NCBI GenBank assembly: GCA_001899685.1
Contig: MKWG01000007.1
Coordinates: 62,001 to 126,000 of the forward strand
Length of the DNA: 64,000 bases
DNA from: Sphingobacteriales bacterium 44-15
GTDB taxonomy: Bacteria > Bacteroidota > Bacteroidia > Chitinophagales > Chitinophagaceae
Direction of reading: 5' to 3'
In this document: positions 18,531-47,054 of the stretch, one piece after another
How positions within the stretch are numbered: position 1 is the first letter of the stretch
Layout of the letters: each line of letters opens with the position of its first letter
Made by a program: the position numbers and the translations under genes
Notes under the pieces: model-generated
The model's database searches: none
What the model was told of the DNA's origin: nothing
What the model saw: only the letters and a program-made list of their open reading frames with translations

Positions 18531-18588
18531 TACAGATATAATTGGCTTGACTTAACACTAGTAAAAGTTTTCGGTCACAAAGTCTGTA

Positions 18589-22061: not shown

Positions 22062-22110
22062 TGGAGTAGTATTTGAACAAATAAATAATGTTAAGGCAGT
22101 CTTTCAGCAT

Positions 22111-23613: not shown

Positions 23614-23649
23614 TGGTTAATCAGTATTAATAATCAGCTATTTTGATTT

Positions 23650-25971: not shown

Positions 25972-26010
25972 ACACTATAATAAATTAAATTATACGGGTT
26001 CGCTCCTGTC

Positions 26011-27474: not shown

Positions 27475-27501
27475 GATATTTATATTTAAATGAATTAAAA
27501 A

Positions 27502-28671: not shown

Positions 28672-28734
28672 CGATGAATTGTACTTAATGACTTAATAAA
28701 ATGAAAGGTCAAAACTGTTCTTTCTGTACCGCAA

Positions 28735-30213
28735 TCAGTTAAACTTAAAAGAAAAGAGGTCTGCATCTTTTAAATAAAACTTTAACCTAACCGGTTGACC
28801 GGATACAGCACTCAAAGACGGGTTGTTCTTCCAGGATACTATCCTTTTAATTTCATTCCCGATTATTTCACCTGCATCTTCTTTTGAAAATCCCGGAATG
28901 GGTTTACCGTCTGCATCAAGCAGCTCTACTCTCACTGATCCTGCAGCAGAGGTTGAATAATTAATTTCCAGTTCTTTTCCTTCAAACTTAATAAGTTTAG
29001 TCGTAATACTCCCCTCTTTTATTCCGGCATGTACAGACACAAATCCATCAATTCGCATTGAGTACCTTTTCAAATGTGCCCCCTCCTGCGCATAACTTTC
29101 ATTAACATATACCGACATTTCCTGTTGCCCGGTCTCTACAACATTCAATGCAGGATAATTTGAACGGGAAACCCAGTTTTCCAGCCCGATTCCGGGTCTT
29201 ATAAAAGATTCCAGAAAGGTTCTGTCGTAAAGATTATCGCCTCTTGTTGTCATAAAGATCGCGTCGGAGCAATCTTTATAATAGTCGGGGTTTACATGCA
29301 AAAGAGCTGCCTGCTCATCCGAAACCACCTGCCGGCCGGGCATGAACCGTGCTCCTATCGCAACGTATATTTGAGGAGCCCGGTAATATGGACTGGTCTG
29401 CTGTGTATACAGATGATCATAGGGAACATTCCCAAACTTCATGGGTTCGGGTTTGGTCCAGTTTATGAAATCTGTTGATGTGGTCCTGCTTACAGACCGG
29501 TAAGATTTATTTCCTTCTTTGGCACTCGTTCTTATATAACTGATATATTTATGCTCCGATTCAGACCAGAAAGCAACATTCTGCGAATCAAAAGCGCCTC
29601 CGGTTATAATACTCTTGTCCTGCAACAGATCCCAGTGTATGCCATCAGCAGAGACATATGCCTTCAGTCCTCCGGGAGCTGTACCTCCAATTGCTTTAAA
29701 TCTTTGAGAAGCTATAGCATCCGGGTTCTTATCAAGAAAAGGACAAAAATTATGAGTAACGGGAGCCGCATGGGCCAGCACTACATTGTTATTTTTAGTC
29801 CCGGCAATGGTATAGATCCCCAAATCAGGCTTTGTCCAGTTAATCCCGTCACGGGATTCAGCATAACATGTCATTTCAGCATCGCCTCCATCTTTTCCGG
29901 CATCTCTTCTTCCCCTGTAATATAGCCTGTATAAATCTCCATCCTTAATCACCGTAACATAGGCGCTGAAGTTGCCTTCCCATGGCTTATCAAAATACAA
30001 CACGGCTCCTTCATTCCTTGGCTGATGCAGCTTTTGTTGTACACCGGTGAGATTTTCTATCAGATATTGATCCACGAAAAGCTCCCTGTTATTTCCTACC
30101 TGTAAAGCCTTATCTTTTTGAGCAAACGACTCCATTTGAATAACAGAACAAATGACAGCTAACCCAAAAAATAAATTCTTTTTTCTACGATTTACAGCCT
30201 GAATAATATACAT
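28735..30213 (-). CDS. Secreted beta-propeller protein, GH32/43-like (paralogue 4)
   Basis: This 492-residue protein has a signal peptide after a basic start (about 1-32, NRRKKNLFFGLAVICSV to SFAQ). Shared blocks are NRELFVDQYLIENL, KPWEGNFSAYVTVIKDGD, YRLYYRG, CYAESRDGINWTKPDLGIY, AHAAPVTHNFCPFLDKNP, FDSQNVAFW, STDFINWTKP, YYRAPQIYVAIGARFMPGRQV and WVSRSNYPALNVVET, ending DADLFSFKFN. It is nearly collinear with paralogue 3 and is the best evidence of recent tandem duplication in the operon. It is 18 bp downstream of paralogue 5. Function as a glycosidase is inferred from fold resemblance and location. Confidence 0.82.
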   Translation of the reverse strand: MYIIQAVNRRKKNLFFGLAVICSVIQMESFAQKDKALQVGNNRELFVDQYLIENLTGVQQKLHQPRNEGAVLYFDKPWEGNFSAYVTVIKDGDLYRLYYRGRRDAGKDGGDAEMTCYAESRDGINWTKPDLGIYTIAGTKNNNVVLAHAAPVTHNFCPFLDKNPDAIASQRFKAIGGTAPGGLKAYVSADGIHWDLLQDKSIITGGAFDSQNVAFWSESEHKYISYIRTSAKEGNKSYRSVSRTTSTDFINWTKPEPMKFGNVPYDHLYTQQTSPYYRAPQIYVAIGARFMPGRQVVSDEQAALLHVNPDYYKDCSDAIFMTTRGDNLYDRTFLESFIRPGIGLENWVSRSNYPALNVVETGQQEMSVYVNESYAQEGAHLKRYSMRIDGFVSVHAGIKEGSITTKLIKFEGKELEINYSTSAAGSVRVELLDADGKPIPGFSKEDAGEIIGNEIKRIVSWKNNPSLSAVSGQPVRLKFYLKDADLFSFKFN

Positions 30214-30231
30214 ACACTTAATCTTTAATTC

Positions 30232-31863
30232 CTAATTGAATACGAAGGAGTAAACGTCGCCATCCTTTACAGCTATCCGCAATCTGACAGGAACGCCCTG
30301 TAATGTAGCAAGATCGGCACCTGACTTCCATATGACCTGCCGGTCCAGATCATCGCCATATATCTCCTCACAATCATCCAGAGAAAATCCCGGGATGACC
30401 TTACCATCCGGCTGCCGGATCTCTACTTTCACCGATCCTGCGGCAGAGGTTGAAACATTTAAATGGACCTTACTTCCGTTAAAAGTAAATGGTTTAGTAA
30501 TGAGCTCACCTCCCGCAAGCGGTGCATGAAGCGAAACAAAGCCATCTATCCTGATAGTATATCGCCTTATGCTTACTCCTGTTTCCTGCAGCGTCTTTTC
30601 TGTTGCATATATTGATATTTCCGCCGGAGCGTCTTCAATATCGGATGGAGTCTCTACCAGCCCCCAATTCTGGTACATATCTCCATAAAACCATGTATCG
30701 TATTTTCTGAGCCCCGGGCGCAGAAAGGCTTCCGGCCAGATAGTAAAATGATCCCCATCCCTGCTGCTCATAATCATACCTTCTGTTATAGCTGTTCCTT
30801 CTCTGCGTGAACCAACCGCCCTTATCTGCCGGTAATCAAACCGGGGCAGAAACTTTGCTGATGTGGTCCAGCCCTTATCTACATACCTTGTAGGAAAACC
30901 TATGAATAATCCGGGTGAACGATAATATGGCAACACCTGATTAGTATATAATTCGCTTACCCTTCCCGTTGGATAGTCTTTGGAACGCGTTTTTTTGTCG
31001 GGCACACTTCCTCCCGGATCTGTATTTGCTTCATAGCTGACAAACTCCGGTTCTGTCCAATGAATAAAATCTTTAGATACAGCAGTACGAATATCCCGCC
31101 CGGCATCTATCCCTGCATTGATGAGGCTTACTGAGCCTTCTGTTTTATTACGAAAATCGCGAACATAGCACCTGTATTCCTTCTTCTCAGCATCCCAAAA
31201 TGCCAGGTTTTGTGAATCAAAAGCTCCTTTGGTAACAACGGGATCTGCGTTCATCAGGGCCCAATGTATTCCATCTGCAGATTTGAAAGCATACAGCCCA
31301 TGTTTGCCTCCACCCCATCCAAGTGCTTTGTATTTCGCATCAGGCGCACAATCCGGGTTCCTGTCTAAAAACGGGGAGAAAGCATGACTTCCTATTGAAT
31401 CAAGAATAATATTGTTCTTAAACGACCCTGCCCAGTTAATGATTCCAAGAACAGGCTTTTTCCAATGAATGCCATCCGTGCTTTCCGCATAACAGTAAAT
31501 ATCTTTACGGTTTGGTCTGTCCTTACCTCCAATATAAGAATAGTGCCCGGCACGATAATACATCCGGTATCTATCCCCATCCCGGAAAACCGTTATATAG
31601 TTTGTTCCATTTCCCTCCCAACCTTCGTTGGTTTCCAAAACAACATTACGTGGTACAGGATGATGAAGCAAAAGATCAGCCTTTCCTGTAACCTTTTCTA
31701 TCAATATATTATCTATAAACAGTTGCCGGGAAGATCCTATCGGGTAAATTTCTTCATTAACCTTTTTTTGAGCACAAATATTTGTTGCATATATCAATGC
31801 ACATATCATCAGGAAATGCCGCAGCATTGAGCGAAATAAGAGGCCTGCTCTAAAAATTTTCAT
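30232..31863 (-). CDS. Secreted beta-propeller protein, GH32/43-like (paralogue 5)
   Basis: This 543-residue protein begins with a signal peptide; Met1 or Met13 (MLRHFLMICALIYATNICAQ) may start it. Blocks: SRQLFIDNILIEKV, EGWEGNGTNYITVFRDGD, YRMYYRAGHYS, CYAESTDGIHWKKPVLGII, AFDSQNLAFWD, SKDFIHWTEP, LYTNQVLPYYRSPGLFIGFPTRYV, and a C-terminal domain ending DGDVYSFVFN. A 20-residue insertion near 265-290 (DPGGSVPDKKTRSKDYPTG) sets it apart. It groups with paralogue 1. It is the first enzyme gene after susD, only 9 bp away, so it is expected to be the most strongly co-expressed with the outer-membrane import complex. Confidence 0.82.
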   Translation of the reverse strand: MKIFRAGLLFRSMLRHFLMICALIYATNICAQKKVNEEIYPIGSSRQLFIDNILIEKVTGKADLLLHHPVPRNVVLETNEGWEGNGTNYITVFRDGDRYRMYYRAGHYSYIGGKDRPNRKDIYCYAESTDGIHWKKPVLGIINWAGSFKNNIILDSIGSHAFSPFLDRNPDCAPDAKYKALGWGGGKHGLYAFKSADGIHWALMNADPVVTKGAFDSQNLAFWDAEKKEYRCYVRDFRNKTEGSVSLINAGIDAGRDIRTAVSKDFIHWTEPEFVSYEANTDPGGSVPDKKTRSKDYPTGRVSELYTNQVLPYYRSPGLFIGFPTRYVDKGWTTSAKFLPRFDYRQIRAVGSRREGTAITEGMIMSSRDGDHFTIWPEAFLRPGLRKYDTWFYGDMYQNWGLVETPSDIEDAPAEISIYATEKTLQETGVSIRRYTIRIDGFVSLHAPLAGGELITKPFTFNGSKVHLNVSTSAAGSVKVEIRQPDGKVIPGFSLDDCEEIYGDDLDRQVIWKSGADLATLQGVPVRLRIAVKDGDVYSFVFN

Positions 31864-31872
31864 TGTTTATTG

Positions 31873-33351
31873 CTATTGATAGCCCGGGTTTTGCTTAACC
31901 TTAGGTTCTTTGCTTAAAATATCCAACGAAAGCGGCCATAGATATTTATAAGTATCCCCGGGGTTATTCTGAAAATAGGGTATCAATTCAGAAGCTTTAT
32001 TAAACCTCAAAATATCCCACCAATATTTCCCTTCGTATAAAAATTCCAGCAAACGCTCCTCCAAAATAGCTTTATCATTATCCTCTTTCGACCCGGACAC
32101 AAATTCATTGCCACTGAAATTACTGCCAAATGCCCTCTTCCTTACTTTATTCATTGCATCAGAAGGATCCTGGGATAACGCATTTTGCGCCTCAGCCTTC
32201 ATCAGCAATACATCAGCATATCTATACAATACCACATCATCAATAAAAGTCCTGGCACCCGCATTTATCATTCCGTCAAATTTCCTCTGGATACAACCAT
32301 AAAATTTGGTATATCCGCTGGTCGCTTCATCATAACTGTATAATTCAGTATAAGTCGCTGTTCGGCGTAAATCTTCCGGTTTAAACTTCTGTCTCGTATC
32401 ATCAGTCAGTGTCCAGTAATTTGCCCCTCCAACAGCACCAATAATTGCGACTGCAGCAGGATCACTGTTAGGCGGATATCCATCTATGTACATATTCTGC
32501 ATAAAAGTGCTTCCCGTTTCATTGAGAAGGAAATTATTCGCCATTAAAATTTCCTTATTCCCTTTATTGTCATAATCAAAGATTCTCCCAAAATCCCCTA
32601 ATAGCTGTACATCGGCCGCTTCTACATCATTCAAAGCAGAAAGTGCTGTGGTCAGATCTTCATTACCGCCATTTAATTTTTTTGCGGTCCATAAAAACAC
32701 ATCGCCTTTAAGCGCATTTAACGCCGGCTTTGACCACCTGTTCCTGCCAGTAGCAAAGCTATTATCAGAAAAAAGAGATAATCCCTGGGCTATATCATTT
32801 TTAATTTGGGTAAATATATCTGCTACCGGGGTTCTTTCCTTATAAATAACTGATGGATCATATCCCTCTGTGGGGTCAGTTACAAGCGGAAGATCTCCCC
32901 ATGTTTTCGCCATTATAAAATAGCAGTATGCACGCATGGTGTATGCTTCTGCCAGATATTTATTCTTTGTGGCATCTGATTTAAAGGAAATAGTCGGCAG
33001 ATACTTTAAGATCAGGTTTACATCATTTATTACCTGGTAAACGCTGCTCCAATCGGGGCCTGCGACAGTAGGGTCAAGAGTATTATTAAAATTCCGGATA
33101 TTGGTGAAGTCGTTCCCAATGGACTGTTTCATATCCTGGCTTCGTGATTCTCCCCAAATAAAAAGATTGGTAGATGTTACGCTCCTAAGCCTGATATACA
33201 TTCCTGTCACAGCGCCATTCGCATCATCTTCCGTTTTCCAGAAAGAAGAAGTAGAAATAGAACTCACAGGCTCAAGCTCCAACTGCTTTGTGCAGCTTGC
33301 AGATAAAGCAATTACGATAGTTATGTATATAAATGATTTAATAGTTTTCAT
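31873..33351 (-). CDS. SusD/RagB-family nutrient-binding lipoprotein
   Basis: A 492-residue protein starting MKTIKSFIYITIVIALSASC, a lipoprotein signal with the cysteine at 20. It then shows the SusD pattern: LELEPVSSISTSSFWKTEDDANGAVTGMY near the N-terminus, helical TPR-like segments (YLAEAYTMRAYCYFIMAKTWGDLPLV, the usual SusD hallmark) and the C-terminal ERLLEFLYEGKYWWDILRF. It forms the lid of the SusC transporter on the cell surface and binds the glycan. The start is set at the ATG at 33351 because the 13 codons upstream (to 33390) do not resemble a signal and overlap the susC end. It is 16 bp downstream of susC. Confidence 0.96.
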   Translation of the reverse strand: MKTIKSFIYITIVIALSASCTKQLELEPVSSISTSSFWKTEDDANGAVTGMYIRLRSVTSTNLFIWGESRSQDMKQSIGNDFTNIRNFNNTLDPTVAGPDWSSVYQVINDVNLILKYLPTISFKSDATKNKYLAEAYTMRAYCYFIMAKTWGDLPLVTDPTEGYDPSVIYKERTPVADIFTQIKNDIAQGLSLFSDNSFATGRNRWSKPALNALKGDVFLWTAKKLNGGNEDLTTALSALNDVEAADVQLLGDFGRIFDYDNKGNKEILMANNFLLNETGSTFMQNMYIDGYPPNSDPAAVAIIGAVGGANYWTLTDDTRQKFKPEDLRRTATYTELYSYDEATSGYTKFYGCIQRKFDGMINAGARTFIDDVVLYRYADVLLMKAEAQNALSQDPSDAMNKVRKRAFGSNFSGNEFVSGSKEDNDKAILEERLLEFLYEGKYWWDILRFNKASELIPYFQNNPGDTYKYLWPLSLDILSKEPKVKQNPGYQ

Positions 33352-33367
33352 GCTCTGCAGTTTAAAA

Positions 33368-36300
33368 TTAGAAAGTAATGGAAGCGCCAAAAATGTAAGA
33401 CCTTGGATTCGGATATGCCGTCTCTGTATCAGTTTGTTCAGGACTCAATCCTTCATATTTGGTGAAGTAGATCAGGTTGCTTCCTGTAAAATTTAGTCGC
33501 ACATCTGTCAAGCCAATTCTATTTAAAAGATTTTTGGGAAGACTGTAAGCAAGCGTCACTTCCCTCAGGCACAGGAAGTCTGTGCTTTGATAAAACCTTG
33601 AGTTGCCCCGGTTATTCCATACATTCCACTGGGCATTTTGATCTGCCCAATAATATCTTGGAATATCTGTAATATCGCCTTGTTTTTGCCAGGATCTGAG
33701 CATGTGCCCGCTGATGGCATTAGCCCCGGAAAAATTACCTTCAAGTCTTGCCCCGGTTTCATAATATATGGTGGCTCCTAAGGTATAATCCATTCTTACT
33801 ATAAGGCTTAAATTTTTATAGCTCAACGTGTTGGTAAAACCACCTGTCACGCGTGGGATTGAGTTGCCCATATATACCCTGTCCCTTGTATCAATAGTAT
33901 CATTTTTATCAACATCAAGCCAATTCACATCACCGCCATATTTTTTCTTGCTTGCACTGGGCACTAACATGTCAATAGGGCCCTTGGCTGCTTCATCATC
34001 TGTTGAATATACGCTAACTTGTTTATACGCATACAGATCGCCAATTCTTTGACCTTCCTGTAAACCTCCTAACCATCCATAAGTTCCTTTTGCCGGATCG
34101 AATACATATACTCCGCCAACACGATTATTTTCAATGCCATTTTCAGGTAACCGAAGAACTTTACTATTAACTTTTGCAGTATTAAACGCAATATTCCATT
34201 GCAGAGGAGAAGTTGGAGACAATATTCTCGCTGACACTTCTACTTCGTATCCCTTATTTTCCAAAGAACCATAATTCGTCAAAATACTTGAGAAACCTGT
34301 TGAAGGAGGTAATGTGAGAGAAGTAAGCAGGTTGTTTGTCACTCTCCGGTAATAATCAAAAATTACGCTAACCCTGTCATTTAATAATCCAACATCTGCG
34401 CCAATATCAAATGTTTTTGATTGTTCCCATTTAAGATTTTGATTAGGCAGTGTGGAAATCATAATACCGGACACACCATTATACTTAGAGGAAGCGTTGT
34501 ATTCACCCTGGGCCTGGTACAACCCTAATCCACTGATATTTCCCGTAACACCATAACTGGCTCTTAATTTCAGCTTTACTAAACCTTCGGGGAGAAAATT
34601 CCAAAAGTTCTCCCGGTCCACATTCCATCCGGCTGACATCCCCGGGAAAATCCCCCATTTATTATCTGTACCCAGATTGGATGCTCCATCATATCTTAAA
34701 CTAACATTAAAAAGATACTTCCTTTTGTAATTGTAGGTAGCCCGTCCGAAATAACCGATCAACGACTGGTGTGTTTCTGAGCTTGATACTACGGTAGGGG
34801 TAGCCGAAGCATTTAATGTTGGAATGATGTCAGTAGCAGCATTGGTACCGGTTGCTGACAACGAAATATTATCTGCCCATAAATAAGAAAGTCCGCCTTT
34901 CAGCTCAAGGTCATGATCGTTATTAAACGTTTTATTATATGTTAAAACAGCATTTACCTGTGGTCTGAAATTTTCTGCGTAGGAACCGGTAGCTGTGCGG
35001 GATGTTACTAATGTTGTCGGGCCGTTTAAATAACTGCGCACAAAATTACGGGAATAACCACCACGGTACTGCAAGGAAATCTGAGGGCTGAAAGTCAGGC
35101 CGGGGATGATTTTGGCTTCACTACCAACAATCAGGGTCAGATCATTTGCAAGATTTTTTGGATTATATACAGATGCTCTGTAAAATGGATTGGAATATCC
35201 TAAGCTACGTCCCGGGGATAAAGTTCCATCTTCAAAATATAATTTATCAGTCGCTGGTGCAATGAGAGAAGATTTAAAAATATCTATTGTCGGTACCTGC
35301 GTATTCCTCGTATTAGAATACATCACCCTTGAATAGAGCTTTATCTTTTCATTGATATTTAATTCTCCATTCATGTTCATAGTAAACCTCTTATAGTCTG
35401 TTTGGATGGCTATACCCTTACCATCCAGATAACCTAATCCTAAATAAAATCTGGCCTTTTGATTGCCACCGGATACAGAGATGGAATGACTTTGAGACAA
35501 TGGCTTTCTAAACAACATGCTTTGCCAGTCTGTATTTGAAAAAATTAATGTCCGAGACGGATCTACAGGATCAGGAATACTTTCCCAACCTTCATTGAGC
35601 TTATATTGATTTTCAGGCGTAAGATACTGTAATGAGTTGGCAGTTGTATTGGTAAGATCATTTCCGGCACCGCCTAAATACGTACGTCCGTCTAATTGTG
35701 CAAGAAAGGATGAGTTTATTCCTCCGGTTGCCAGTATACCCAGGCGGGCAAAATATACTTCATCTTTTGCTGATAGAACGTCATAGGTTTTGGCAACTTC
35801 AGATTTTGTCAAATCAAATCTGTATGTCACCTGTGTTTTTCCGCTCTGACCTGATTTTGTTTCTACAATTACAACTCCGTTTGATCCCTGCGCCCCGTAT
35901 ATAGCCGTGGCGGCAGCGTCCTTTAATACCTGGATGGATTTAATATCATTAACATCAATATCATTCATATTACTCCTTAAAACTCCATCAATAATATAAA
36001 TGGGTGGAGAACTATTGGGGCTATTGATAGAAGTACCTCCCCTTACAATAATATTAGGAGCGGCACCGGGCTGACCCGAATTGGTTTGTACTCTTACACC
36101 AGCCAACGTACCCTGAAGGGCAGCAGCAGCATTCGAATACGGAACATTTTCCAACACTTTATTATCAAGCTTGGAAACCGCAGTAGTTACAACGTCCCTG
36201 CGTTGCTTACTACCGAAACCAACGACAACCACTTCTGATAAAGCGTTTGGAGCTCCACTCCCTAAGGTTATATTAAGTGGCGACTGGCTATTGACAAAAA

Positions 36301-36595
36301 CTTCTTTAGTGCTGAAACCAACCGAGCTTATTATCAGGGTTACATTCAGGTTAGGCAAATTGATACTAAAGAAGCCATCATTATCTGCAGTAGCTCCGGC
36401 TGTCCCGTTTTTTACTTTTATGCTTGCTCCCGAAAGAGGGTCACCTTCTTCATTGGTTACTTTACCGGAAACCCTTACTTGTGATTGTGCAATCGCAATA
36501 TTTAACTGGCATAGCAATAGCATGGATAAAATTCTATACAACATGCTGAATGATGAAAAAAAAGGCCTTGAAGATCTAGTGGATTGTCGTATCAT
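33368..36595 (-). CDS. SusC/RagA-family TonB-dependent outer-membrane receptor
   Basis: A 1075-residue receptor. After the signal peptide (about 1-37, LLLCQLNIAIAQ) comes a carboxypeptidase-regulatory-like domain (about 40-125, VSGKVTNEEGDPLSGASIKVKNG), the TonB plug (about 130-260, VVVVGFGSKQRRDVVTTAVSKL and SIQVLKDAAATAIYGAQGSNGVV) and a beta-barrel to the C-terminal IFGASITF. No STN domain is present, so unlike the partial receptor at 1-152 it does not signal to a FecR. I start at the ATG at 36595 (MIRQSTRSSR); the frame is open to 36715 but that part contains the -7 box at 36691-36698. It is the first gene of operon B. Confidence 0.97.
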   Translation of the reverse strand: MIRQSTRSSRPFFSSFSMLYRILSMLLLCQLNIAIAQSQVRVSGKVTNEEGDPLSGASIKVKNGTAGATADNDGFFSINLPNLNVTLIISSVGFSTKEVFVNSQSPLNITLGSGAPNALSEVVVVGFGSKQRRDVVTTAVSKLDNKVLENVPYSNAAAALQGTLAGVRVQTNSGQPGAAPNIIVRGGTSINSPNSSPPIYIIDGVLRSNMNDIDVNDIKSIQVLKDAAATAIYGAQGSNGVVIVETKSGQSGKTQVTYRFDLTKSEVAKTYDVLSAKDEVYFARLGILATGGINSSFLAQLDGRTYLGGAGNDLTNTTANSLQYLTPENQYKLNEGWESIPDPVDPSRTLIFSNTDWQSMLFRKPLSQSHSISVSGGNQKARFYLGLGYLDGKGIAIQTDYKRFTMNMNGELNINEKIKLYSRVMYSNTRNTQVPTIDIFKSSLIAPATDKLYFEDGTLSPGRSLGYSNPFYRASVYNPKNLANDLTLIVGSEAKIIPGLTFSPQISLQYRGGYSRNFVRSYLNGPTTLVTSRTATGSYAENFRPQVNAVLTYNKTFNNDHDLELKGGLSYLWADNISLSATGTNAATDIIPTLNASATPTVVSSSETHQSLIGYFGRATYNYKRKYLFNVSLRYDGASNLGTDNKWGIFPGMSAGWNVDRENFWNFLPEGLVKLKLRASYGVTGNISGLGLYQAQGEYNASSKYNGVSGIMISTLPNQNLKWEQSKTFDIGADVGLLNDRVSVIFDYYRRVTNNLLTSLTLPPSTGFSSILTNYGSLENKGYEVEVSARILSPTSPLQWNIAFNTAKVNSKVLRLPENGIENNRVGGVYVFDPAKGTYGWLGGLQEGQRIGDLYAYKQVSVYSTDDEAAKGPIDMLVPSASKKKYGGDVNWLDVDKNDTIDTRDRVYMGNSIPRVTGGFTNTLSYKNLSLIVRMDYTLGATIYYETGARLEGNFSGANAISGHMLRSWQKQGDITDIPRYYWADQNAQWNVWNNRGNSRFYQSTDFLCLREVTLAYSLPKNLLNRIGLTDVRLNFTGSNLIYFTKYEGLSPEQTDTETAYPNPRSYIFGASITF

Positions 36596-36690
36596 AATCG
36601 CAGTTTTTGGTAGTTTTAGGAAATCAGAGTGATCAGAAAAATGTTGCCTACTCATAACACAATTAGAATCGTTAACAATAATTTCATTTT

Positions 36691-36698
36691 CAAATCTA
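36691..36698 (-). promoter_or_regulatory. Promoter -7 box of operon B (susC)
   Basis: TAGATTTG on the minus strand matches the Bacteroidota TAnnTTTG consensus. It gives a leader of about 90 nt before the susC start at 36595. The shared 35-bp element lies exactly 21 nt upstream. No separate TTTG -33 box is needed if an activator bound at the element recruits polymerase. Confidence 0.7.
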
Positions 36699-36719
36699 AT
36701 TGTAGTAACAATCAAAATC

Positions 36720-36754
36720 TGCTACTTTTCTTTACATTCTTAATACTATTTTTC
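36720..36754 (-). promoter_or_regulatory. Shared 35-bp regulatory element, copy B (susC promoter)
   Basis: On the minus strand it starts GAAAAATAGTATTAAG and ends AGAAAAGTAGCA. It matches the ridA copy at 30 of 35 positions without gaps. AGTA cores lie at element positions 8-11 and 29-32, 21 bp apart, and the element ends 21 nt before the -7 box. Confidence 0.8.
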
Positions 36755-37051: not shown

Positions 37052-39349
37052 TCAATCCTTAAAAACCTCCAGCAGAAAGTGGCAGTTCAATATCTTTTCT
37101 ATAAGATCCTGTTCAACATAATAATACTGGTTGGAAGCCTCATACCCTATTCTCGGGTCTTCCCTGCAGACACGGAACAGCTCCGCCGCAAGCGCTATCT
37201 CATTCCGGAGGATACCACGGATATTTTTCTTTAAACTTTTGCGAATACCTGGTGTAAGTTTTTTGTTGGCCAGGCTATCTCTGTACATTACGAATCGCGC
37301 CTGATTTACTACCGACGCGAAATGGAGGTATGCAGCAACCGCGATGCGTTCATCAGACAAAACGGTCTGCCGGTGCAAACTGTCTGAAATGTTTTTTACC
37401 TGCCGGAAATATTCAAGCCCTTTGAGCCATCCTTCTGCTACCAGGTTAAACTGGCGGATAAAAATACTGTCCGGGTAAATGGCTCTCCAGCTTTTAAGAT
37501 CGTCATAGGGAAAGCCTACCATGGTTGCTTTGTAACCGGTCGCTTTTTCGTACAGCAGGTTTGCCGGGCCATATTGCTGCGGCGCAGTGTATAACGTGCC
37601 GCCGCTATACGGATATGCTTCAAATGCCTTGCTGAAAGCAGTCCATGCTTTACGTGCAGCAGGCACTGCGGCAACGCCATATCTGTTTGTGGCGATACTG
37701 TCGAGCACATCATTTTCACCTGATACGCTATAATTTAAGCACAGGTCTGCAATCTCCATATTCGGAGAAGGATAACCGCCCAGCGACCAGCTCAGCATGA
37801 GCCCGTCCATATCGTAATTTGAAAGAGCCGATATATGCTGCTGCACCAGGTCGAAAACAGGTAACCAGGGAACGGCAGACAGTTCCCATGAATTATTTAC
37901 CTGCACTTTTGCGAAAGTCCTGAGACCGGTCTGCTTTGCCCATGCCCAGTGTTGTATCGCACGCGGGCCGGGTCCAACAGCCGATAAGGAATATTCGCCG
38001 ACTTTTGAGTCAATGCCCCCCCTGCTGATGGGCTTGGCCCATTCGCTCACCGACATCAGGTATACAGATTTAGGCAATGCAGTAATGACATCCTGTGCCA
38101 ATCCATGGTTATGCCAGCCCCAGTCCCATACAATTACTTTAGCATCGGGATTTCCGGTATGTACGCCTTCTTCGATAACACGGTTCACCCCGGCGATAAT
38201 ATCAGCATAGCTGCGCCGGCTGCAGCGGGGGCAAAGTTCCGGATGACCATGAGAAGCGCAATTGGTAAAATTCTCTGATGCTGTAATTGTGATCACTCCG
38301 GCGAGCCCCGGCACATTTTTAAAAACAAAAGCCAGCGACGCTCTCATCCAGTTGGTAACAGTTTCGTCACTGGTGCACATGGCATAAAAATTTCCTTCCT
38401 TTGTTCCCTGCATGCCGGAGCGGTTCGTAAAAAAGGAAGCGGGCATTGCCCTCGGCTCATTCATATACAGGTAAATGCCGATACCATATTTAGCGGCCCG
38501 CTCAACTATCTTTTTCAGATTGTTTATCCGTGTCTCATGACCTACTCCGAATTCCGGGAAACCCTTGCCGCCGGGCGCCATCTGGTTAAGCACCGTATGC
38601 ATCCAGATACCATTCACCCCGCTCCGGGATAATTTTTCGAGCAATCCATCCGGGTAAGGATTTTGAGAAGTATCTGAAAGCGGATCACCAAAGATGCCGA
38701 AATAAGAATAAACGATCCTGGGCCGGATATTAGCATTATGAGTGTCCGGTTTATTAATACGCTCATTCGGGGAGACCAAACTGAGATCATCTATAAACTT
38801 AAACCGCGGTACACCGGTCTGTTGCTGAAAATACTTTTGAGCGATCTTTTTGATCGCTGCAGCCCGCGCAATGGCTTTCGGACCGGGAGCAGCATACCGG
38901 AGCTCTGAAACCTTTGGCTTTAAGCCCCCCAGCTTAATGAAAAGAAAATCGTCTTCTTTAAGCGCAACTGAGAGCTCTTCAGCACTCATGCCCAGCAGCT
39001 TCAGCAACTGGCCATACGGCAACAAATGCCAGTTCCTTCTTATTACTGTAATGTATATGCGCTTGTTAAAAGATCCATCCACCGGTACATAGGAAGGAAG
39101 TCCCATCGAAGCCGCTATCCCCAGGATATCTGAATTTTTACATCCTATCGTTCTGCTCATTGCATCCAGGCTTACGAGATTCCAGTTACGCCATACAAAA
39201 GCGTGTAACCTGTCAGGAAAATGGGTTACCGGTATGGCTTCGGGATATGCACCAACAGGTAAACTGTCTGTTTGCCCAAAAGTTTTCTCAGTAAAAAGGC
39301 CTGATAAAAAAAGCAAACAGCAAAAGAAGATCCGTTTCATCTTGTCCAT
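37052..39349 (-). CDS. Secreted glycosidase-like TIM-barrel protein
   Basis: This 765-residue protein has a signal peptide (start MDKMKRIFFCCLLFLSGL; Met4 is an equally good start). The central part (about 215-560) looks like a glycoside hydrolase (beta/alpha)8 barrel: IVYSYFGIFGDPLSD, GVNGIWMHTVLNQM, IGIYLYMNEPRAMP, ITITASENFTNC, VIVWDWGWHNHGLAQDV, YLMSVSEWA and MDGLMLSWSLGGYPSPN. Conserved acids in MNEPR, TASENF and VSEW are candidate catalytic residues. A CxxC-type pair (ELCPRCSRR) is also present. It resembles GH20/GH84/alpha-glucuronidase-type barrels in style but I cannot name the family. A helical C-terminal region follows. It may be the last gene of operon C (316-bp gap) or have its own promoter. 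Confidence 0.75.
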   Translation of the reverse strand: MDKMKRIFFCCLLFLSGLFTEKTFGQTDSLPVGAYPEAIPVTHFPDRLHAFVWRNWNLVSLDAMSRTIGCKNSDILGIAASMGLPSYVPVDGSFNKRIYITVIRRNWHLLPYGQLLKLLGMSAEELSVALKEDDFLFIKLGGLKPKVSELRYAAPGPKAIARAAAIKKIAQKYFQQQTGVPRFKFIDDLSLVSPNERINKPDTHNANIRPRIVYSYFGIFGDPLSDTSQNPYPDGLLEKLSRSGVNGIWMHTVLNQMAPGGKGFPEFGVGHETRINNLKKIVERAAKYGIGIYLYMNEPRAMPASFFTNRSGMQGTKEGNFYAMCTSDETVTNWMRASLAFVFKNVPGLAGVITITASENFTNCASHGHPELCPRCSRRSYADIIAGVNRVIEEGVHTGNPDAKVIVWDWGWHNHGLAQDVITALPKSVYLMSVSEWAKPISRGGIDSKVGEYSLSAVGPGPRAIQHWAWAKQTGLRTFAKVQVNNSWELSAVPWLPVFDLVQQHISALSNYDMDGLMLSWSLGGYPSPNMEIADLCLNYSVSGENDVLDSIATNRYGVAAVPAARKAWTAFSKAFEAYPYSGGTLYTAPQQYGPANLLYEKATGYKATMVGFPYDDLKSWRAIYPDSIFIRQFNLVAEGWLKGLEYFRQVKNISDSLHRQTVLSDERIAVAAYLHFASVVNQARFVMYRDSLANKKLTPGIRKSLKKNIRGILRNEIALAAELFRVCREDPRIGYEASNQYYYVEQDLIEKILNCHFLLEVFKD

Positions 39350-39665
39350 TACCGAATATACAATTTCATACTAAACAAAATAACTTACAGAAATTTTAAT
39401 GAATTCCGTAGAACTGTTTCGGCATGGCAAAAGGGGCTAGGGGCTATTATCAGCAAGGAATGTTACGATGCAGATGCCTCTCCCGTGCCCATGACGCATT
39501 GCCAAACAGTTAATTGCCAATGCCACCCGGAGACTGCTTCTCCCGACCTTCGGTTGGGATCGCAAAGACAACAAAGTGTTCTGTTTTTACAATCTTGCAC
39601 TAAAGCAATCTTCATATTGATAAGTTGTAAAAAAGGCTCGGAACCCTATAAAACTGCTTTTCTTA
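39350..39665. other. Intergenic region upstream of the glycosidase-like gene
   Basis: A 316-bp stretch without a credible gene. It contains GGAGACTGCTTCTCCC followed by a 7-bp hairpin (CCCGACC and GGTTGGG) and GATCGCAAAGAC (about 39529-39570), which resembles dispersed repeats of the GAGATTGCTTCxxCGCAATGAC type known in several phyla. No perfect TAnnTTTG box was found for the minus-strand gene. Confidence 0.5.
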
Positions 39666-40571
39666 CTACAATGCTGTAGCCAGTAGATCCAACAACCCGG
39701 CATCCTCCTCCCGCATTGCCGCAAGCGCCTGATCTATGTGCCGCGTGGAACGGCAGCCTATCAGCACGGAACTTATCTGTGGCTGACGGAAAGCCCAGGA
39801 CAACGCCAGCGATGCAACAGGCTTTCCCGTTTCTTCCGCAACTCTCAACAATTTATCAAGACGTTCCCATGCATGATCATTAAAATAAATATCCTTATGC
39901 CCGGGTATGATCTCAAAGCGGGTATCCGGCGAAACAGCATACCGGTATTTCCCCGTGAGAAATCCTGCGCCCAAAGGGCTATAGGTGATAATATGTATAT
40001 TGAAGTCACGGCACAGTTCTCTTAGTTCATCATCCACATCACTCACCGCAAAATTCTGATTATTCTGAATGAATGCAACCTGGATGAGATTATTGTTTAT
40101 TTGTTTTTGCAGCAATGCGTTCAACTGCTTAACATTAAAATTGCTTACGCCCAATGCACCTATCTTTCCCGATATGAAAAGCTTATTCAGTTCAGCCAAA
40201 ACGTGGTCGTCCTCTACGGATGAATGCCAGGAATGAAGAAAGAGTATGTCAATACGATCCCTTCGAAGCCGCATAAGACTTTGCTCAACGGCTGCAGTAA
40301 TAGTGGTGCTTTTAAAGGGAGGTAACAGTTTTGTTGCGATTGTTATATGCGCGGCAGCTTTTCCTCTTTGGGTAAACCACTGACCGATAATTTCTTCGGA
40401 AGCGCCCCCGCCATACACTGCGGCAGTATCAAAAAATACGATCTCCTTCTCAAGCGCGTAATCCATAATTGAAAAAGAAGTGGGAACATCAATCTCTCTT
40501 CCAAATGTTACACAACCAAGACCTCCCTTGCTGATATACTTATGTAAGGATGGAATAAAAGTTTTGTTCAT
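39666..40571 (-). CDS. Aldo/keto reductase
   Basis: This 301-residue TIM-barrel oxidoreductase has the tetrad in FFDTAAVYGGG (Asp, Tyr), ITIATKLLP (Lys) and ILFLHSWHS (His). It starts atypically with KTFIPSLHKYISKGGLGCVTFGREIDVPTS in place of the usual LGxTGxxVS opening. ALSWAFRQPQISSVLIGCRSTRHID near the C-terminus is the NADPH-binding segment. It is distinct from the aldo/keto reductase in operon A (317 residues) and less typical. It is the seventh gene of the run from ridA. The substrate is unknown, probably a carbonyl product of the preceding transaminase or dehydrogenase steps. Confidence 0.91.
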   Translation of the reverse strand: MNKTFIPSLHKYISKGGLGCVTFGREIDVPTSFSIMDYALEKEIVFFDTAAVYGGGASEEIIGQWFTQRGKAAAHITIATKLLPPFKSTTITAAVEQSLMRLRRDRIDILFLHSWHSSVEDDHVLAELNKLFISGKIGALGVSNFNVKQLNALLQKQINNNLIQVAFIQNNQNFAVSDVDDELRELCRDFNIHIITYSPLGAGFLTGKYRYAVSPDTRFEIIPGHKDIYFNDHAWERLDKLLRVAEETGKPVASLALSWAFRQPQISSVLIGCRSTRHIDQALAAMREEDAGLLDLLATAL

Positions 40572-40662
40572 ACATCAATGCTTCTTTAATATATAGTATC
40601 AAACGTGAGAAGTGAGACGTGAAATGACGACTAATCTCTCACATCTCACTTCTCACCTTTTC
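40572..40662. repeat. Word-like intergenic repeat (AACGTGAGAAGTGAGACG and CTCACATCTCAC types)
   Basis: The spacer carries CAAACGTGAGAAGTGAGACG followed by TCTCACATCTCACTTCTCAC, which is partly self-complementary. The same words occur at 18419-18450 and 56766-56830. Confidence 0.7.
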
Positions 40663-42012
40663 TCACCCTGCCATTTCACTCAAAGCATTTCTCACTATCC
40701 CTTCGCCATCCTCCTTAATATGGCTCGTCCGGCACCGCCATGTTTCATATCCTCCTTTTTCTATTTCATGCGCAGGAGGTATATACCCGATATACCCGTT
40801 GGCCATAGTGATGGTAAAATATTTATCAGTATTGATCTTCTTTTTTAGAGCCAACCCCGTTTCTGCAAAAAACTCACCGCCTAATGCACCAATGGTCATA
40901 TCTCCGATTTTCAATACCTGTACAGGGAATTCAATGGTATCCGGGTATTCATTGAGAAACACCTGCTCTCTCGCATATATTTTCACCATAGCTTCCGCAT
41001 CAGGACTGATGAGGCGGTAATCTGTTTGTGAAACTATTTTTTTTGCAGCTTCCACTTCAGCATCAGAAGGCTTACGCACACCAAGGGTGATATATTTGAA
41101 TGAAGCAGATAAAGAAGGGTCTGTTTGCCATTCTATGTTTTTTAATGCTTCGTATAATTTCCATGCAAGATCGCTCCCTATTATTTCTTTTTTTTGATGC
41201 TCCTCTTTAGGATAACGGTCTGGCTGAAGGAAATCCCAGATATTGGCTTCGCCGCTGGTACCATTGCTGAGCATTGCAATAAAATTTTCACCGGCTTTTA
41301 AATTAGCTGTAATATGTCTTGCAAATACGGCAAAATAATCTGCAGTTATGGTCCCGTTAGCACAATCACCTACATAATGCATGGAATAGTTCGCCAGCAG
41401 GCTGATCCATTCTCCATCTATGGATTGGATGGCAACAGCGCTTAATTCAGGGTCAACCGTTGAAGCTCTCTTATCTATATATGCCTCACCTCCGGCAGGA
41501 TTTGTTTTTATTATGTCCAGCCCGCCTGTAACAGGGTTTACAGCCTTATATCCGGGCTTCATATAATATCGCCTGCACACCACATGCTCCGGAACAGCTA
41601 CAGACGCAAACCCGATCCTGGCAGGACGTAACCGCTGCACAGCTTCTGCAACAGACTGTACAATTTTTTTTCCCAGGCTTTTCCGGTATGGCAGATCACA
41701 GGGACCTCCCAGCAGGTCGAGTATAGAACCTGCATAATGCGTATGGGTAGCAGCTATTAAAATATGCTCAGCGGGAATCCCGGTAAGGACAGTTATTTCC
41801 TTTTTTACTTCTACTATAAACTCTTTATCCATTGCACAGATATCAACGATCACAATGGCAAGCGTTGTCCCGGCATTTTGTAATACCAGTGCTTTTGAAT
41901 ATAAAGGATCGTGAATGGTATGTGCGTAAAAAGCCACAAACTCACCGTTAATGATGGTTCCCAATGGAGGGGTAATATCTGTTTTGGCAGCGCCGGCGAA
42001 AAAGTGATTCAT
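40663..42012 (-). CDS. Neutral/alkaline ceramidase-like protein, no signal peptide
   Basis: This 449-residue protein resembles the N-terminal domain of neutral ceramidases: GAAKTDITPPLGTIINGEF at the start, a HTHYAG metal-type motif (LIAATHTHYAG), YSMHYVGD, and SNGTSGEANI where ceramidases carry the nucleophile region. The closing segments GEFFAETGLALKK and YIPPAHEIEKGGYE also fit. It lacks a signal peptide and the C-terminal domain, so it is likely a cytoplasmic amidase of a small substrate. The start is the ATG at 42012; the frame is open to 42165 but the 51 extra codons translate a repeat. In operon C, with the M19 dipeptidase, it adds a second amide-cleaving enzyme. Confidence 0.87.
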   Translation of the reverse strand: MNHFFAGAAKTDITPPLGTIINGEFVAFYAHTIHDPLYSKALVLQNAGTTLAIVIVDICAMDKEFIVEVKKEITVLTGIPAEHILIAATHTHYAGSILDLLGGPCDLPYRKSLGKKIVQSVAEAVQRLRPARIGFASVAVPEHVVCRRYYMKPGYKAVNPVTGGLDIIKTNPAGGEAYIDKRASTVDPELSAVAIQSIDGEWISLLANYSMHYVGDCANGTITADYFAVFARHITANLKAGENFIAMLSNGTSGEANIWDFLQPDRYPKEEHQKKEIIGSDLAWKLYEALKNIEWQTDPSLSASFKYITLGVRKPSDAEVEAAKKIVSQTDYRLISPDAEAMVKIYAREQVFLNEYPDTIEFPVQVLKIGDMTIGALGGEFFAETGLALKKKINTDKYFTITMANGYIGYIPPAHEIEKGGYETWRCRTSHIKEDGEGIVRNALSEMAG

Positions 42013-42172
42013 TTGAGATTTGAAATTTGAGATTTGAAAACTGTAAAGGCATAAAGTATAACAAGTAAGGCATAGGGTATATGGTCTGCACAAGTTATAA
42101 GAGCCTTGCTTCCCTGAAACCTGGAACCTGGAACCTGAAACTCGTAACCCCTTATCACTTACCACTTAACAC
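42013..42172. repeat. Word-like intergenic repeat (TTTGAGATTTGAAATTTGA, CCTGGAACCTGGAACC, TATCACTTACCACTT types)
   Basis: This is the richest example: TTTGAGATTTGAAATTTGAG, then CTGAAACCTGGAACCTGGAA, then TTATCACTTACCACTTAACA. It lies between the M19 and ceramidase-like genes and extends the latter's frame falsely. No gene is visible. Confidence 0.75.
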
Positions 42173-43270
42173 TTACCTCTCATTCCCCCACGCCTCCCTC
42201 AAAAACCTTATCCAGTTTTTGTGAAAAATATTTTCCACATCCTCTTCTTTATAGCCTCGTCTTAACAATATCTCATGATACTTCTGCAGGTCGGCAATGC
42301 TGTTCATATCCCAGGGGGATTGCTCTGTTCCAAAATTCCCGTCAAGATCAGTCCCGAAAGCCACATGCGAGCTGTTCCCTGCTATCTGGCAGATGTGATC
42401 CCAATGGTCAACCAGGTTTTCGAGGCGTATATTCAGTTGCCACGGGTCTGATACAGCATCAATAAAACGGTTATCCATCGCCCAGCAGTCAAGCATACCG
42501 CCGATCACTGCACCTCTTTCTATCAATAACTTTATCTGTTCGTCTGTCAACTGCCTTTGCGTAGGTACGATCTTTCTTACATTATGATGGCTCGCCCATA
42601 TAGGTCCGTCGTACAGATCCATCACCTGTATAAAACCCTCGTCTGTTAAATGGGTAACATCGAGGATCATTCCCAGCTTACCCATCTCTTTTACCAGTTC
42701 AATGCCCCGTGGTGTTAAAGGGCCTTCCATTTTAGTGCCCGGCGCATAACGCCCATGTGCAAAATGCGCGGGACCTGCAGCACGTAAGCCATACGCGTAT
42801 GCCTTGTGCAGGTAGGTAATATCCACTAAGGAATCTGCACCTTCCAGGCTTAAGATATATCCGACGGGCTTTTTGTCATCAGCAATTGTTTCGTCATTCC
42901 ACAACTGCAGGTGGGCATCCAGTTGCTGCAGGTTTATGATCTGCACAATTTCACCCAAAGCTTCCATTTCACGATACCAGGCAAGCTGCGCCTGTGTCAT
43001 CGCCCATGCCTGTTGCGGCGAGTTCCAGCTCGATCCCGGCAGGGCGCTTCCCGCAGCGTTTACACGCGACAATTGTGTAGCTACTACCAATCCGACCTTT
43101 CCTTTACGCAACTCCGGCAGGCATACCGTACCTTTCCCCCTGTCGTTCTTATCTTTCAGATGCATTTCTCTCAGCCTGATCTCATCCAGCGGGCGGGTAA
43201 GATCCCGGTTCCATTCTATGGCATTCATCGCCAGGTCGAGATGCGCGTCAAAAATGAAATGCCTATTCAT
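42173..43270 (-). CDS. Membrane dipeptidase (peptidase M19 family)
   Basis: This 365-residue protein has all dinuclear zinc ligands of renal dipeptidase relatives: H10 and D12 (FDAHLDLAM), the bridging E143 (LSLEGADS), H207 (LDVTHLTDEGF), H228 (ASHHNVRKI) and D308 (FGTDLDGNFG). Family members hydrolyse dipeptides, often with a D-residue at the C-terminus, and some act on other amides. No signal peptide. Its start overlaps the end of the upstream dehydrogenase-like gene by 8 bp, so translation is coupled. Its presence suggests an aminoacyl-type amide in the substrate or in an intermediate of operon C. Confidence 0.95.
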   Translation of the reverse strand: MNRHFIFDAHLDLAMNAIEWNRDLTRPLDEIRLREMHLKDKNDRGKGTVCLPELRKGKVGLVVATQLSRVNAAGSALPGSSWNSPQQAWAMTQAQLAWYREMEALGEIVQIINLQQLDAHLQLWNDETIADDKKPVGYILSLEGADSLVDITYLHKAYAYGLRAAGPAHFAHGRYAPGTKMEGPLTPRGIELVKEMGKLGMILDVTHLTDEGFIQVMDLYDGPIWASHHNVRKIVPTQRQLTDEQIKLLIERGAVIGGMLDCWAMDNRFIDAVSDPWQLNIRLENLVDHWDHICQIAGNSSHVAFGTDLDGNFGTEQSPWDMNSIADLQKYHEILLRRGYKEEDVENIFHKNWIRFLREAWGNER

Positions 43271-44240
43271 TTAGCGTAATTTTGGAATTGATCATTTTTG
43301 ATCCCTCCTTCAGGTAGTTGAAAGGATATTTTTCAATAATTTCTTTTATTTCAAAGCTGAATTCCCTGAACTGTTCCTCCCACTGCTCCCCGGCTCCTGC
43401 TGCATAGTTATAGAAACCCCCGGTATTTTCCATGCCGGTCTTGCCAGTTTCTATAAGCCGGGCAAAAAGTGCAGGTGGCTGAGCTTCCTTCGACAATTCG
43501 CGGTTCAGGTCTTTCATTACCAATCCATACGCGTAAGTGCCCATCATATCCATATACCTGCAATTACCGGCAAAGGGCAGATAATACCCTGCATCATTCC
43601 TGCACGCACGGTCAATATCTTCTATCGATGCATAACCATGCTCTATAAGATAAAGTGCTTCCCGTGCAAGCGCTGCCATTAAGCGCGCATTAATGCTGTA
43701 GCCGCAAAGAACAATACAGGGATCTTTCTCCCAGCTATTCACGGCTGCCGTTTCAACGGACTTTATTATGCCAGCAGGCGTTAAATGGTTCCCTATGATT
43801 TCCAGGAACGCAGTAGTATGAGCAGGATCGCACCAGTTCAGCCCAATTATCCGCTGCGGGTATTGTGTGTTTTCCTGCAATGTTTCCAGCAAAATACTTT
43901 CAGTATTCACTGCAATAATTGTTTCAGGAGAAAGCGTCTGCTCCAACTGCCGTATAAGCTTTTGCTTGACCGGCAGATCCTCTCCTGTAATACAAACAGC
44001 AATATCTGCCGCCCCTGCTTCCTCAACAGCAGACAGGTATTGCAGCATATCTGTGCCGATGGTAATATTCCGGTATTGCTTCCAGTCGGCTACATTATCA
44101 GCAATATACTTCTTATCCTGCGTCGTGTTCTCTGAAATACACTGTACCTGCATTCCGGCCTTTAAAAGGTTAGTTGCTATGCCTGACGCCATCCTGCCTG
44201 TGCCCACCACCAATATATTTTTAAAACTTATACGCTCCAT
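43263..44240 (-). CDS. 3-hydroxyacyl-CoA dehydrogenase-like protein with altered active site
   Basis: This 325-residue protein has the NAD fold GTGRMASGIA (13-22) and both domains of the family. At the catalytic segment, normally GxHFxxP, it reads GLNWCDP, so N135 stands where the catalytic histidine is expected, while the partner E147 (FLEIIG) is kept. The C-terminal domain has YAYGLVMKDLN and NTGGFYNYAAG in place of GxGFYxY. The family includes L-gulonate 3-dehydrogenase and carnitine dehydrogenase, so a non-CoA substrate is possible. It overlaps the dipeptidase gene by 8 bp. Compared with its neighbour paralogue (45569-46552), which keeps the histidine, it may have lost or changed its activity. 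Confidence 0.88.
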   Translation of the reverse strand: MERISFKNILVVGTGRMASGIATNLLKAGMQVQCISENTTQDKKYIADNVADWKQYRNITIGTDMLQYLSAVEEAGAADIAVCITGEDLPVKQKLIRQLEQTLSPETIIAVNTESILLETLQENTQYPQRIIGLNWCDPAHTTAFLEIIGNHLTPAGIIKSVETAAVNSWEKDPCIVLCGYSINARLMAALAREALYLIEHGYASIEDIDRACRNDAGYYLPFAGNCRYMDMMGTYAYGLVMKDLNRELSKEAQPPALFARLIETGKTGMENTGGFYNYAAGAGEQWEEQFREFSFEIKEIIEKYPFNYLKEGSKMINSKITLNE

Positions 44241-44255
44241 CCTGTATGTAAAATT

Positions 44256-45560: not shown

Positions 45561-45568
45561 AGCAGTGC

Positions 45569-46552: not shown

Positions 46553-46556
46553 ACTT

Positions 46557-46990: not shown

Positions 46991-46998
46991 CAAATGTA
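46991..46998 (-). promoter_or_regulatory. Promoter -7 box of operon C (ridA)
   Basis: TACATTTG on the minus strand matches TAnnTTTG exactly and lies 33 bp upstream of the ridA ATG. The shared element ends exactly 21 nt upstream. Confidence 0.75.
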
Positions 46999-47019
46999 GT
47001 TTCACTAAAAATATATTGA

Positions 47020-47054
47020 TGTTACTTTTATTTACATTTATAGTACTATTTTTC
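47020..47054 (-). promoter_or_regulatory. Shared 35-bp regulatory element, copy C (ridA promoter)
   Basis: On the minus strand it starts GAAAAATAGTACTATA and ends ATAAAAGTAACA. It is near-identical to the susC copy (30 of 35) and matches the operon A copy at 26 of 35. The two 21-bp halves match each other at 14 of 21 positions, so the site is a tandem direct repeat. Confidence 0.8.

What the first reader, a model, noticed from the sequence alone, without database searches (positions are those of the whole stretch)
36691..36754. One 35-bp element at identical spacing before three separate operons: a hidden regulon
The promoters of operon A (11493-11556), operon B (36691-36754) and operon C (46991-47054) each hold the same gapless 35-bp element, followed by exactly 21 nt and a perfect TAnnTTTG -7 box. 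Copies B and C match at 30 of 35, A and C at 26 of 35. The 21-nt spacers themselves are not conserved, so this is not a recent duplication of the whole region but conserved sites. I inspected the upstream regions of other genes in the window and saw no further copy. It ties together a transporter-aldolase operon, a SusCD locus with five propeller paralogues, and an amine-processing operon. I know of no description of this regulon.
Basis: seen in the sequence. Interest (0 to 1): 0.86.

Follow-up and report, generated by a model that had tools for sequence, protein, structure and literature searches.

The report
Shared AraC-type switch of catabolic cluster
The repeated 35-base element is very probably the docking site of a single AraC-type regulator, encoded at the edge of the same gene cluster, that switches on neighbouring operons for taking up and breaking down one still unknown nutrient; the design is known, but I found no description of this regulator-site pair, which recurs in several classes of Bacteroidota.

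Summary
In detail: three minus-strand promoters carry the 35-bp element, a 21-nt non-conserved spacer and TAnnTTTG. A fourth, weaker copy (19872-19935) was missed. The copies serve neighbouring operons of one catabolic cluster; the exact core occurs only three times in the 6.0-Mb genome. The element is a direct repeat with a 21-bp period at about -68 to -34, the layout of an AraC-family activator site at promoters without a conserved -33 box. The only transcription-factor gene recognised in the cluster is AraC-type (2544-3410). Its orthologues track the element: in 294 family genomes, sites at E<=1e-4 occur in 12 of 16 with the orthologue and 1 of 278 without. Around 80 relatives of the regulator in named genomes, 55 loci hold 104 sites (reversed matrix: 0), often before relatives of the first genes of operons A, B and C. 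So the regulon is real, local and conserved in Chitinophagia, Sphingobacteriia and Cytophagia; the regulator is identified by inference, without binding data. New member of a known kind (AraC-type direct-repeat operators in Bacteroidota); the substrate is unknown.

The parts
11493..11556 (-). Site A: 35-bp element (11556-11522), 21-nt spacer, TACATTTG (11500-11493); before the MFS gene of operon A. Predicted +1 at 11488
   Evidence: +1 inferred from the -12..-5 position of the box given in PMC9723704 (passage)
36691..36754 (-). Site B: element (36754-36720), spacer, TAGATTTG; before SusC of operon B. Predicted +1 at 36686
46991..47054 (-). Site C: element (47054-47020), spacer, TACATTTG; 33 nt before the RidA ATG of operon C. 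Predicted +1 at 46986
19872..19935 (-).
   Evidence: 25.4 bits with a matrix from other genera, best background 12.4; also a 2-mismatch hit. Not among the listed hits of model R1
2544..3410 (+). AraC-family regulator (288 aa): N-terminal cupin-like domain plus C-terminal double HTH; proposed reader of the element
   Evidence: Pfam HTH_18 2.5e-22; orthologue co-occurrence; model and fold search
3529..11520 (-). Operon A: MFS transporter, HpcH/HpaI-type aldolase, aldo/keto reductase, GFO/IDH/MocA oxidoreductase, SDR, zinc ADH, SDR, SDR (the listed MFS ORF begins upstream of the true start)
   Evidence: operon extent inferred from strand and gaps
13751..36715 (-). Operon B: SusC, SusD, proteins without a Pfam match, BNR_2 protein, amidohydrolase-aminotransferase fusion, SSF symporter, LamG protein, then (after site D) DAO, BNR_2 protein, unknown, PhyH, HEAT-like (the listed SusC ORF begins upstream of the true start)
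   Evidence: operon extent inferred
37052..46958 (-). Operon C: RidA, 3HCDH-type dehydrogenase, class-III aminotransferase, 3HCDH-type dehydrogenase, M19 dipeptidase, ceramidase-like protein, aldo/keto reductase, 765-aa unknown (the last follows a gap of about 0.3 kb; membership uncertain)
   Evidence: operon extent inferred

Best explanation
The 35-bp element is a DNA operator upstream of the transcript, not an RNA or a mobile repeat: a direct repeat of two 14-bp half-sites, roughly GAAAAATAGTAYYA and RnAnRAWAGTARCA, 21 bp apart, i.e. two helical turns on one DNA face. It is bound by the AraC-family regulator encoded at 2544-3410. The site ends where a -33 box would lie (about -68 to -34 if TAnnTTTG is -12 to -5), the distance to the -7 box is nearly fixed, and the spacer holds no conserved -33 sequence; so the bound regulator most likely acts as an activator that touches RNA polymerase, switched by a ligand held in its cupin-like N-terminal domain, and uptake (SusCD, MFS, SSF) and breakdown genes of one cluster come on together. 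Shown: site architecture, confinement to the cluster, conservation, co-occurrence with this regulator. Inferred: that the protein binds the site, activation rather than repression, and an inducer related to the cluster's substrate.
For: Confinement: exact core AAAGTANCA-N21-TANNTTTG at 3 places in 6.0 Mb, all in this cluster; model R1 finds the three at 3.0e-12 to 2.6e-11, the next own-genome hit at 0.32. Repeat: in 43 sites (42 plus site C) the self-match is highest at a shift of 21 bp, also after removing the element's A-richness (correlation 0.75, next 0.56 at 24), and in 63 non-redundant sites of more distant loci (0.68, next 0.60 at 24); the spacer carries almost no information. Distance: 46 of 52 sites kept with free gap have 21 nt, though other gaps were penalised; over 80 named loci 21 nt gives most hits of all gaps 10-32. 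Regulator: orthologue of 60% or more in 11 of 11 genomes (own included) with the orthologous ceramidase-like gene. 294 family genomes: site E<=1e-4 in 12 of 16 with it, 1 of 278 without (Fisher 3e-17); of the 7 of these 16 that gave no site to model R2, 3 at 1e-4 and 6 at 2e-4 (G123 and G277 among the 7 did give sites to the script matrix, not to R2). Order sample of 396: 4 of 5 with, 1 of 391 without. 80 named loci: 104 sites in 55, reversed matrix 0. Sites often lie about 130 bp upstream of the regulator gene, pointing away from it. First genes behind the 104 sites: RidA 23, SusC 18, HCDH1 18 (several double sites before one gene), PhyH 6, HpcH 4. A genome with two regulator copies on two contigs has sites beside both (G304). 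Fold matches to full-length ToxT, CsvR and Rns and to the N domains of AraC, RhaR and BgaR.
Against: No binding or expression data. In the window the regulator gene lies about 8 kb from site A and no site was found at its own promoter. 25 of 80 loci have no site within 10 kb; I searched 19 of these 25 genomes whole: 13 have a hit at E<=1e-3, but three with orthologues of 57-59% (G307-G309) have none at 0.05, and of three with relatives of 45-49% two have none and one a hit at 0.011. In five genomes (G239 = G296, G123, G179 = G305, G295, G306) sites and regulator are on different contigs, so linkage is unproven there. G211 has a site but no orthologue; its contig holds two genes close to genes of related clusters, so the regulator may be missing from that assembly, which is a guess. 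At the looser E<=0.01, 38 of 278 genomes without the orthologue also have hits. A shift of 24 bp is a close second in the self-match and per column even slightly ahead of 21 in the distant set without the composition correction (0.320 against 0.310). Site conservation is partly built in, since sites were picked by a matrix.
Confidence: 0.82

Rival explanations
1. The same AraC-type protein binds the element but represses, or both represses and activates, as classical AraC does by looping between distant half-sites.
For: Several sites in one cluster, and paired sites on both sides of the regulator gene in Larkinella loci (about -135 and +911), would allow looping; E. coli AraC does both (passages of PMC4760080).
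Against: A position of about -68 to -34 with near-fixed distance to the -7 box and no conserved -33 sequence is the activator arrangement; a pure repressor site would not need a fixed distance.
Confidence: 0.1
2. Another transcription factor, encoded elsewhere, recognises the element; the AraC gene merely travels with the cluster.
For: In the window the AraC gene is about 8 kb from the nearest site; an ECF sigma/FecR pair lies beside it; in five genomes site and regulator are on different contigs.
Against: No other transcription-factor family among the ORFs I scanned between 2544 and 50946 (short ORFs not scanned); the 21-bp direct repeat fits AraC-type binding; the association holds in two genome samples. 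No ORF of 100 aa or more beside the regulator resembled the ECF gene in the eight relatives where I mapped that contig, and the sites have the TAnnTTTG box of the main sigma factor.
Confidence: 0.06
3. The element is only an extended promoter (A-tract UP element plus core) without a specific regulator, or a chance or duplication artefact.
For: A-rich 5' end (element 54% A); TAnnTTTG is the ordinary -7 box of the phylum.
Against: A general promoter feature would occur genome-wide; the core occurs only in this cluster. In 14 comparisons of related promoters the element keeps 23-34 of 35 bases while the spacer keeps 4-9 of 21 in 12 and 14 and 18 of 21 in two close SusC pairs.
Confidence: 0.02

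Closest known systems
HTCS regulons of Bacteroides (AraC-type DNA-binding domain; PMC3878776, abstract and found passages seen)
   Same: Direct-repeat motifs with a period of about 21 bp (two 16-bp sites with 5 bp between; 12 with 9; 14 with 6) in front of susCD and catabolic operons, inferred by comparative genomics.
   Different: HTCS are hybrid two-component proteins with sensor, kinase and receiver domains; here the regulator is a one-part 288-aa cupin-AraC protein. The motif sequences were not compared: their alignments are in supplements I could not open.
CgrA, AraC-family regulator of the carrageenan locus of Zobellia galactanivorans (PMC5698469, found passages seen)
   Same: AraC-family regulator inside a catabolic locus of a marine Bacteroidetes; its deletion delays and reduces growth on the substrate; the regulon includes a susCD-like pair.
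   Different: Different genes and substrate; no operator motif in the passages I saw.
E. coli AraC at araI1-araI2 (PMC4760080, found passages seen)
   Same: Two proximal operators next to the promoter; binding at araI2 recruits RNA polymerase; AraC's N domain is among the fold matches.
   Different: Enterobacterial promoter; DNA looping not shown here. The 21-bp period and -35 overlap of araI are recalled, not taken from a call; sequences not compared.

Membership tests
AraC/XylS family regulator (protein 2544-3410) | C-terminal double helix-turn-helix domain | tested here: met
   HTH_18 2.5e-22, above cut-off; helices 184-287; matches to 3oou, 3mn2, 3lsg by sequence and fold
AraC/XylS family regulator (protein 2544-3410) | N-terminal cupin-like ligand/dimer domain (many members) | tested here: met
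   Strands 17-95, then helices 108-162; Foldseek matches to AraC (2arc), RhaR (5u93) and BgaR domains and full-length ToxT/Rns; mean pLDDT 79.8, pTM 0.63. No Pfam match in that part
AraC-type direct-repeat operator | Two half-sites in direct orientation about 21 bp apart | tested here: met
   Self-match highest at 21 bp in both site sets after composition correction, 24 bp second
AraC-type direct-repeat operator | Bound by the cognate AraC protein | not testable with these tools
   Co-occurrence only
Class II-like activator site | Site abuts the -33 region at a fixed distance from the -7 box | tested here: met
   21 nt in 46 of 52 sites (other gaps penalised); most hits at 21 nt of all gaps 10-32. 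Transcription starts not mapped
HTCS (hybrid two-component) regulon | Regulator with sensor, kinase and receiver domains | tested here: not met
   288-aa protein; only HTH families in Pfam
Dispersed regulon of separate operons | Sites at several distant genome positions | tested here: not met
   Strong sites of the own genome all within C7:73493-109054

The most novel reading that the evidence does not exclude
The AraC protein and its element mark an unrecognised catabolic pathway, spread over three classes of Bacteroidota, for a nitrogen-bearing glycoside or sugar acid: SusCD uptake, sialidase-like and other surface proteins, two 3HCDH-type dehydrogenases, RidA, an aminotransferase, an M19 hydrolase and a 2-keto-3-deoxy-acid type aldolase acting together. 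The operator would then be a search key for the genes of the pathway, including PhyH and ceramidase-like ones that nobody would otherwise link to it.
Probability: 0.4. Interest if true: 0.6.

Novelty: new member of a known kind. Interest (0 to 1): 0.42.

Why it matters
It turns a motif seen by eye into a regulator-operator pair that can be tested directly: one protein, four promoters, one predicted class of inducer. The operator groups genes of unknown function into one pathway in many environmental Bacteroidota, and could serve as a ligand-controlled promoter.

Tried and rejected
Dispersed regulon: rejected, strong own-genome sites are in one cluster. ECF sigma factor beside the regulator as reader of the element: rejected (see rivals). 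Recent duplication of the whole region: rejected, spacers differ. Substrate: not resolved; Pfam, NCBIfam and PDB searches gave broad enzyme classes (one search gave no hit at its cut-off of 1e-25), and a paper search on the gene set gave nothing useful. A search for the solved BNR relative (Dfer_1899, 5hx0) listed one unrelated paper. Searches for a description of the regulon: 8 papers listed, only PMC3878776 on AraC-type motifs looked relevant; 0 papers; 2 papers, the relevant one again PMC3878776. The library lacks most subscription journals and supplements were not open, so 'not described' is weak.

Selection to note: one search ended with 64 hits above its first threshold, 52 kept as upstream and non-coding; the logo uses the 42 of these with 28 bits or more and a gap of 21, plus site C; R2 was built from 22 sites of nine genomes. 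Six of the 80 named loci (L131, L145, L177, L178, L182, L187, judged by equal contig length) are contigs that had given training sites; without them 50 of 74 loci hold a site. The samples overlap: by equal coordinates, at least L125, L131, L145, L154, L157, L161, L177, L178, L182 and L187 are genomes of the family sample, G366 of the order sample is G306/L186, and the order sample shares G000, G004 and further orthologue-free genomes with the family sample; without G000 and G004 it is 2 of 3 against 1 of 391. Searches used stricter filters that lose weak matches. Sites with two copies before one gene count twice. Family or class names were looked up for four genera only.

Full report
Observation. 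Identities are B-C 30, A-C 26, A-B 23 of 35; spacers agree at 10, 5 and 7 of 21. Unrelated 35-mers of the window reach at most 22-23 of 35. With a matrix trained only on 28 sites of other genera, A, B and C score 44.5, 48.1 and 52.1 bits; a fourth place, 19872-19935, scores 25.4; the next is 12.4, and 20 mononucleotide shuffles reach 12.0. The fourth site lies in the gap between the LamG and DAO genes and would be an internal promoter of operon B.

Genome-wide. The pattern AAAGTANCA-N21-TANNTTTG has 3 exact matches in the 6,006,143-base genome, namely A, B and C; 3 more have one mismatch (their surroundings were not studied); with up to two mismatches there are 90 matches against 90 for the reversed control. 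The sequence model R1 of the three copies finds them at 3.0e-12, 1.2e-11 and 2.6e-11 and nothing else of this genome below 0.3. So the set is local.

Surroundings. From 47 kb down to 3.5 kb most genes run on the minus strand (an exception is 11641-13722). Operon C: RidA, 3HCDH-type, class-III aminotransferase (best solved relatives are glutamate-1-semialdehyde aminomutases), 3HCDH-type, M19, ceramidase-like, aldo/keto reductase. Operon B: SusC, SusD, BNR_2 and unassigned proteins, an amidohydrolase-aminotransferase fusion, SSF, LamG, DAO, PhyH. Operon A: MFS, HpcH/HpaI aldolase, reductases. At the left end, convergent with operon A, is an AraC-family gene (2544-3410), with an ECF sigma/FecR pair beyond it.

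Relatives. In 294 genomes of the family, 12 hold a relative of the ceramidase-like protein at E<=1e-40; 11 have an orthologue-like match (45% or more), the twelfth (G211) matches of up to 39% only. I fetched cluster contigs, mapped ORFs and scanned them: sites stand before relatives of RidA, SusC, MFS, PhyH, the AmidoAT gene and others. In 14 comparisons with window sites A-C the element keeps 23-34 of 35 bases, the spacer 4-9 of 21 in 12 of them and 14 and 18 in two. Forty-three sites (42 plus site C) give a logo whose self-match is highest at a 21-bp shift; positions 1-14 and 22-35 are the half-sites, the spacer is nearly uninformative and the box is TAnnTTTG. After subtracting the element's own composition the correlation is 0.75 at 21 (0.56 at 24), and 0.68 (0.60 at 24) in 63 non-redundant sites of more distant loci; without this correction, per column, 24 is slightly ahead in the distant set (0.320 against 0.310). 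With the box at -12 to -5 (PMC9723704, passage) the element spans -68 to -34.

Regulator. The AraC orthologue (60% or more) is in 11 of the 11 cluster genomes; G191 and G211 have only matches of up to 44%. In the 294 family genomes the orthologue (E<=1e-90) is in 16. R2 sites at E<=1e-4: 12 of 16 with, 1 of 278 without; at 2e-4: 15 of 16 and 3 of 278; at 0.01: 16 of 16 and 38 of 278. Nine of the 16 gave sites to R2; of the other seven, 3 have a site at 1e-4 and 6 at 2e-4. An order-wide sample of 396, overlapping the first, has the orthologue in 5; sites at 1e-4 in 4 of these 5 and in 1 of 391 others.

Named genomes. The best 80 of 348 relatives of the regulator in genome contigs were scanned within the DNA held (up to 10 kb each side): 104 sites of 22 bits or more in 55 loci, none with the reversed matrix; of spacers from 10 to 32 nt, 21 gives most (78 sites of 31 bits or more; next 38 at 22 nt). 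First genes behind the 104 sites: RidA 23, SusC 18, HCDH1 18, PhyH 6, HpcH 4, SSF 2, MFS, HEAT, BNR and ceramidase-like 1 each, 19 without a match to a window protein, 10 without an ORF found. The organisms with sites include Niabella (Chitinophagia), Parapedobacter (Sphingobacteriia), Larkinella and Cyclobacterium (Cytophagia). Of the 25 loci without a site I searched 19 genomes whole: 13 have a hit at E<=1e-3; three with orthologues of 57-59% have none at 0.05; of three with 45-49% two have none and one has a hit at 0.011. In nine of the 13 the site is on the regulator's contig, in four (G295, G296, G305, G306) on another. G304 has two regulator copies on two contigs and sites near both.

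Protein. The AlphaFold2 model (33 sequences, mean pLDDT 79.8, pTM 0.63) has a strand-rich N domain and the double HTH; Foldseek's best are full-length ToxT, CsvR and Rns (TM about 0.5-0.55) and the ligand domains of RhaR, AraC and BgaR. These are matches within a large family and say nothing about virulence.

Reading. A one-part, probably ligand-sensing AraC-family activator binds two half-sites on one DNA face next to the -33 region of four promoters of its own catabolic cluster. Direct repeats with about 21-bp period for the AraC-type domains of Bacteroides HTCS are in print (PMC3878776, passages), and so is an AraC-family regulator of a Bacteroidetes catabolic locus (CgrA, PMC5698469, passages). 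Hence a new member of a known kind. I found no description of this pair, within the limits of that library. The substrate is open.

Noticed in passing
   Followed up: yes
G000:C7:51212-51523, about 10.5 kb left of the window (in L080): A piece 80% identical to residues 60-167 of the regulator, with a TGA inside: perhaps remains of a second copy.
   Followed up: no
window 23650-25971 (-): Fusion of an Amidohydro_2 domain and a class-III aminotransferase in one 773-aa protein, with relatives of similar length in G028, G239 and G279.
   Followed up: no
window 27502-28671 (-): BNR_2 protein with a very close solved relative named as uncharacterised, 5hx0 (Dfer_1899), E 2.6e-172.
   Followed up: partly
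window 1602-2186 and 277-1485 (-): ECF sigma and FecR pair, followed left of the window by another SusC/SusD-like pair: apparently a separate uptake locus next to the cluster.
   Followed up: no
G211:C79 (L109): A good site without a regulator orthologue in that assembly; the contig carries two genes close to genes of related clusters.
   Followed up: partly
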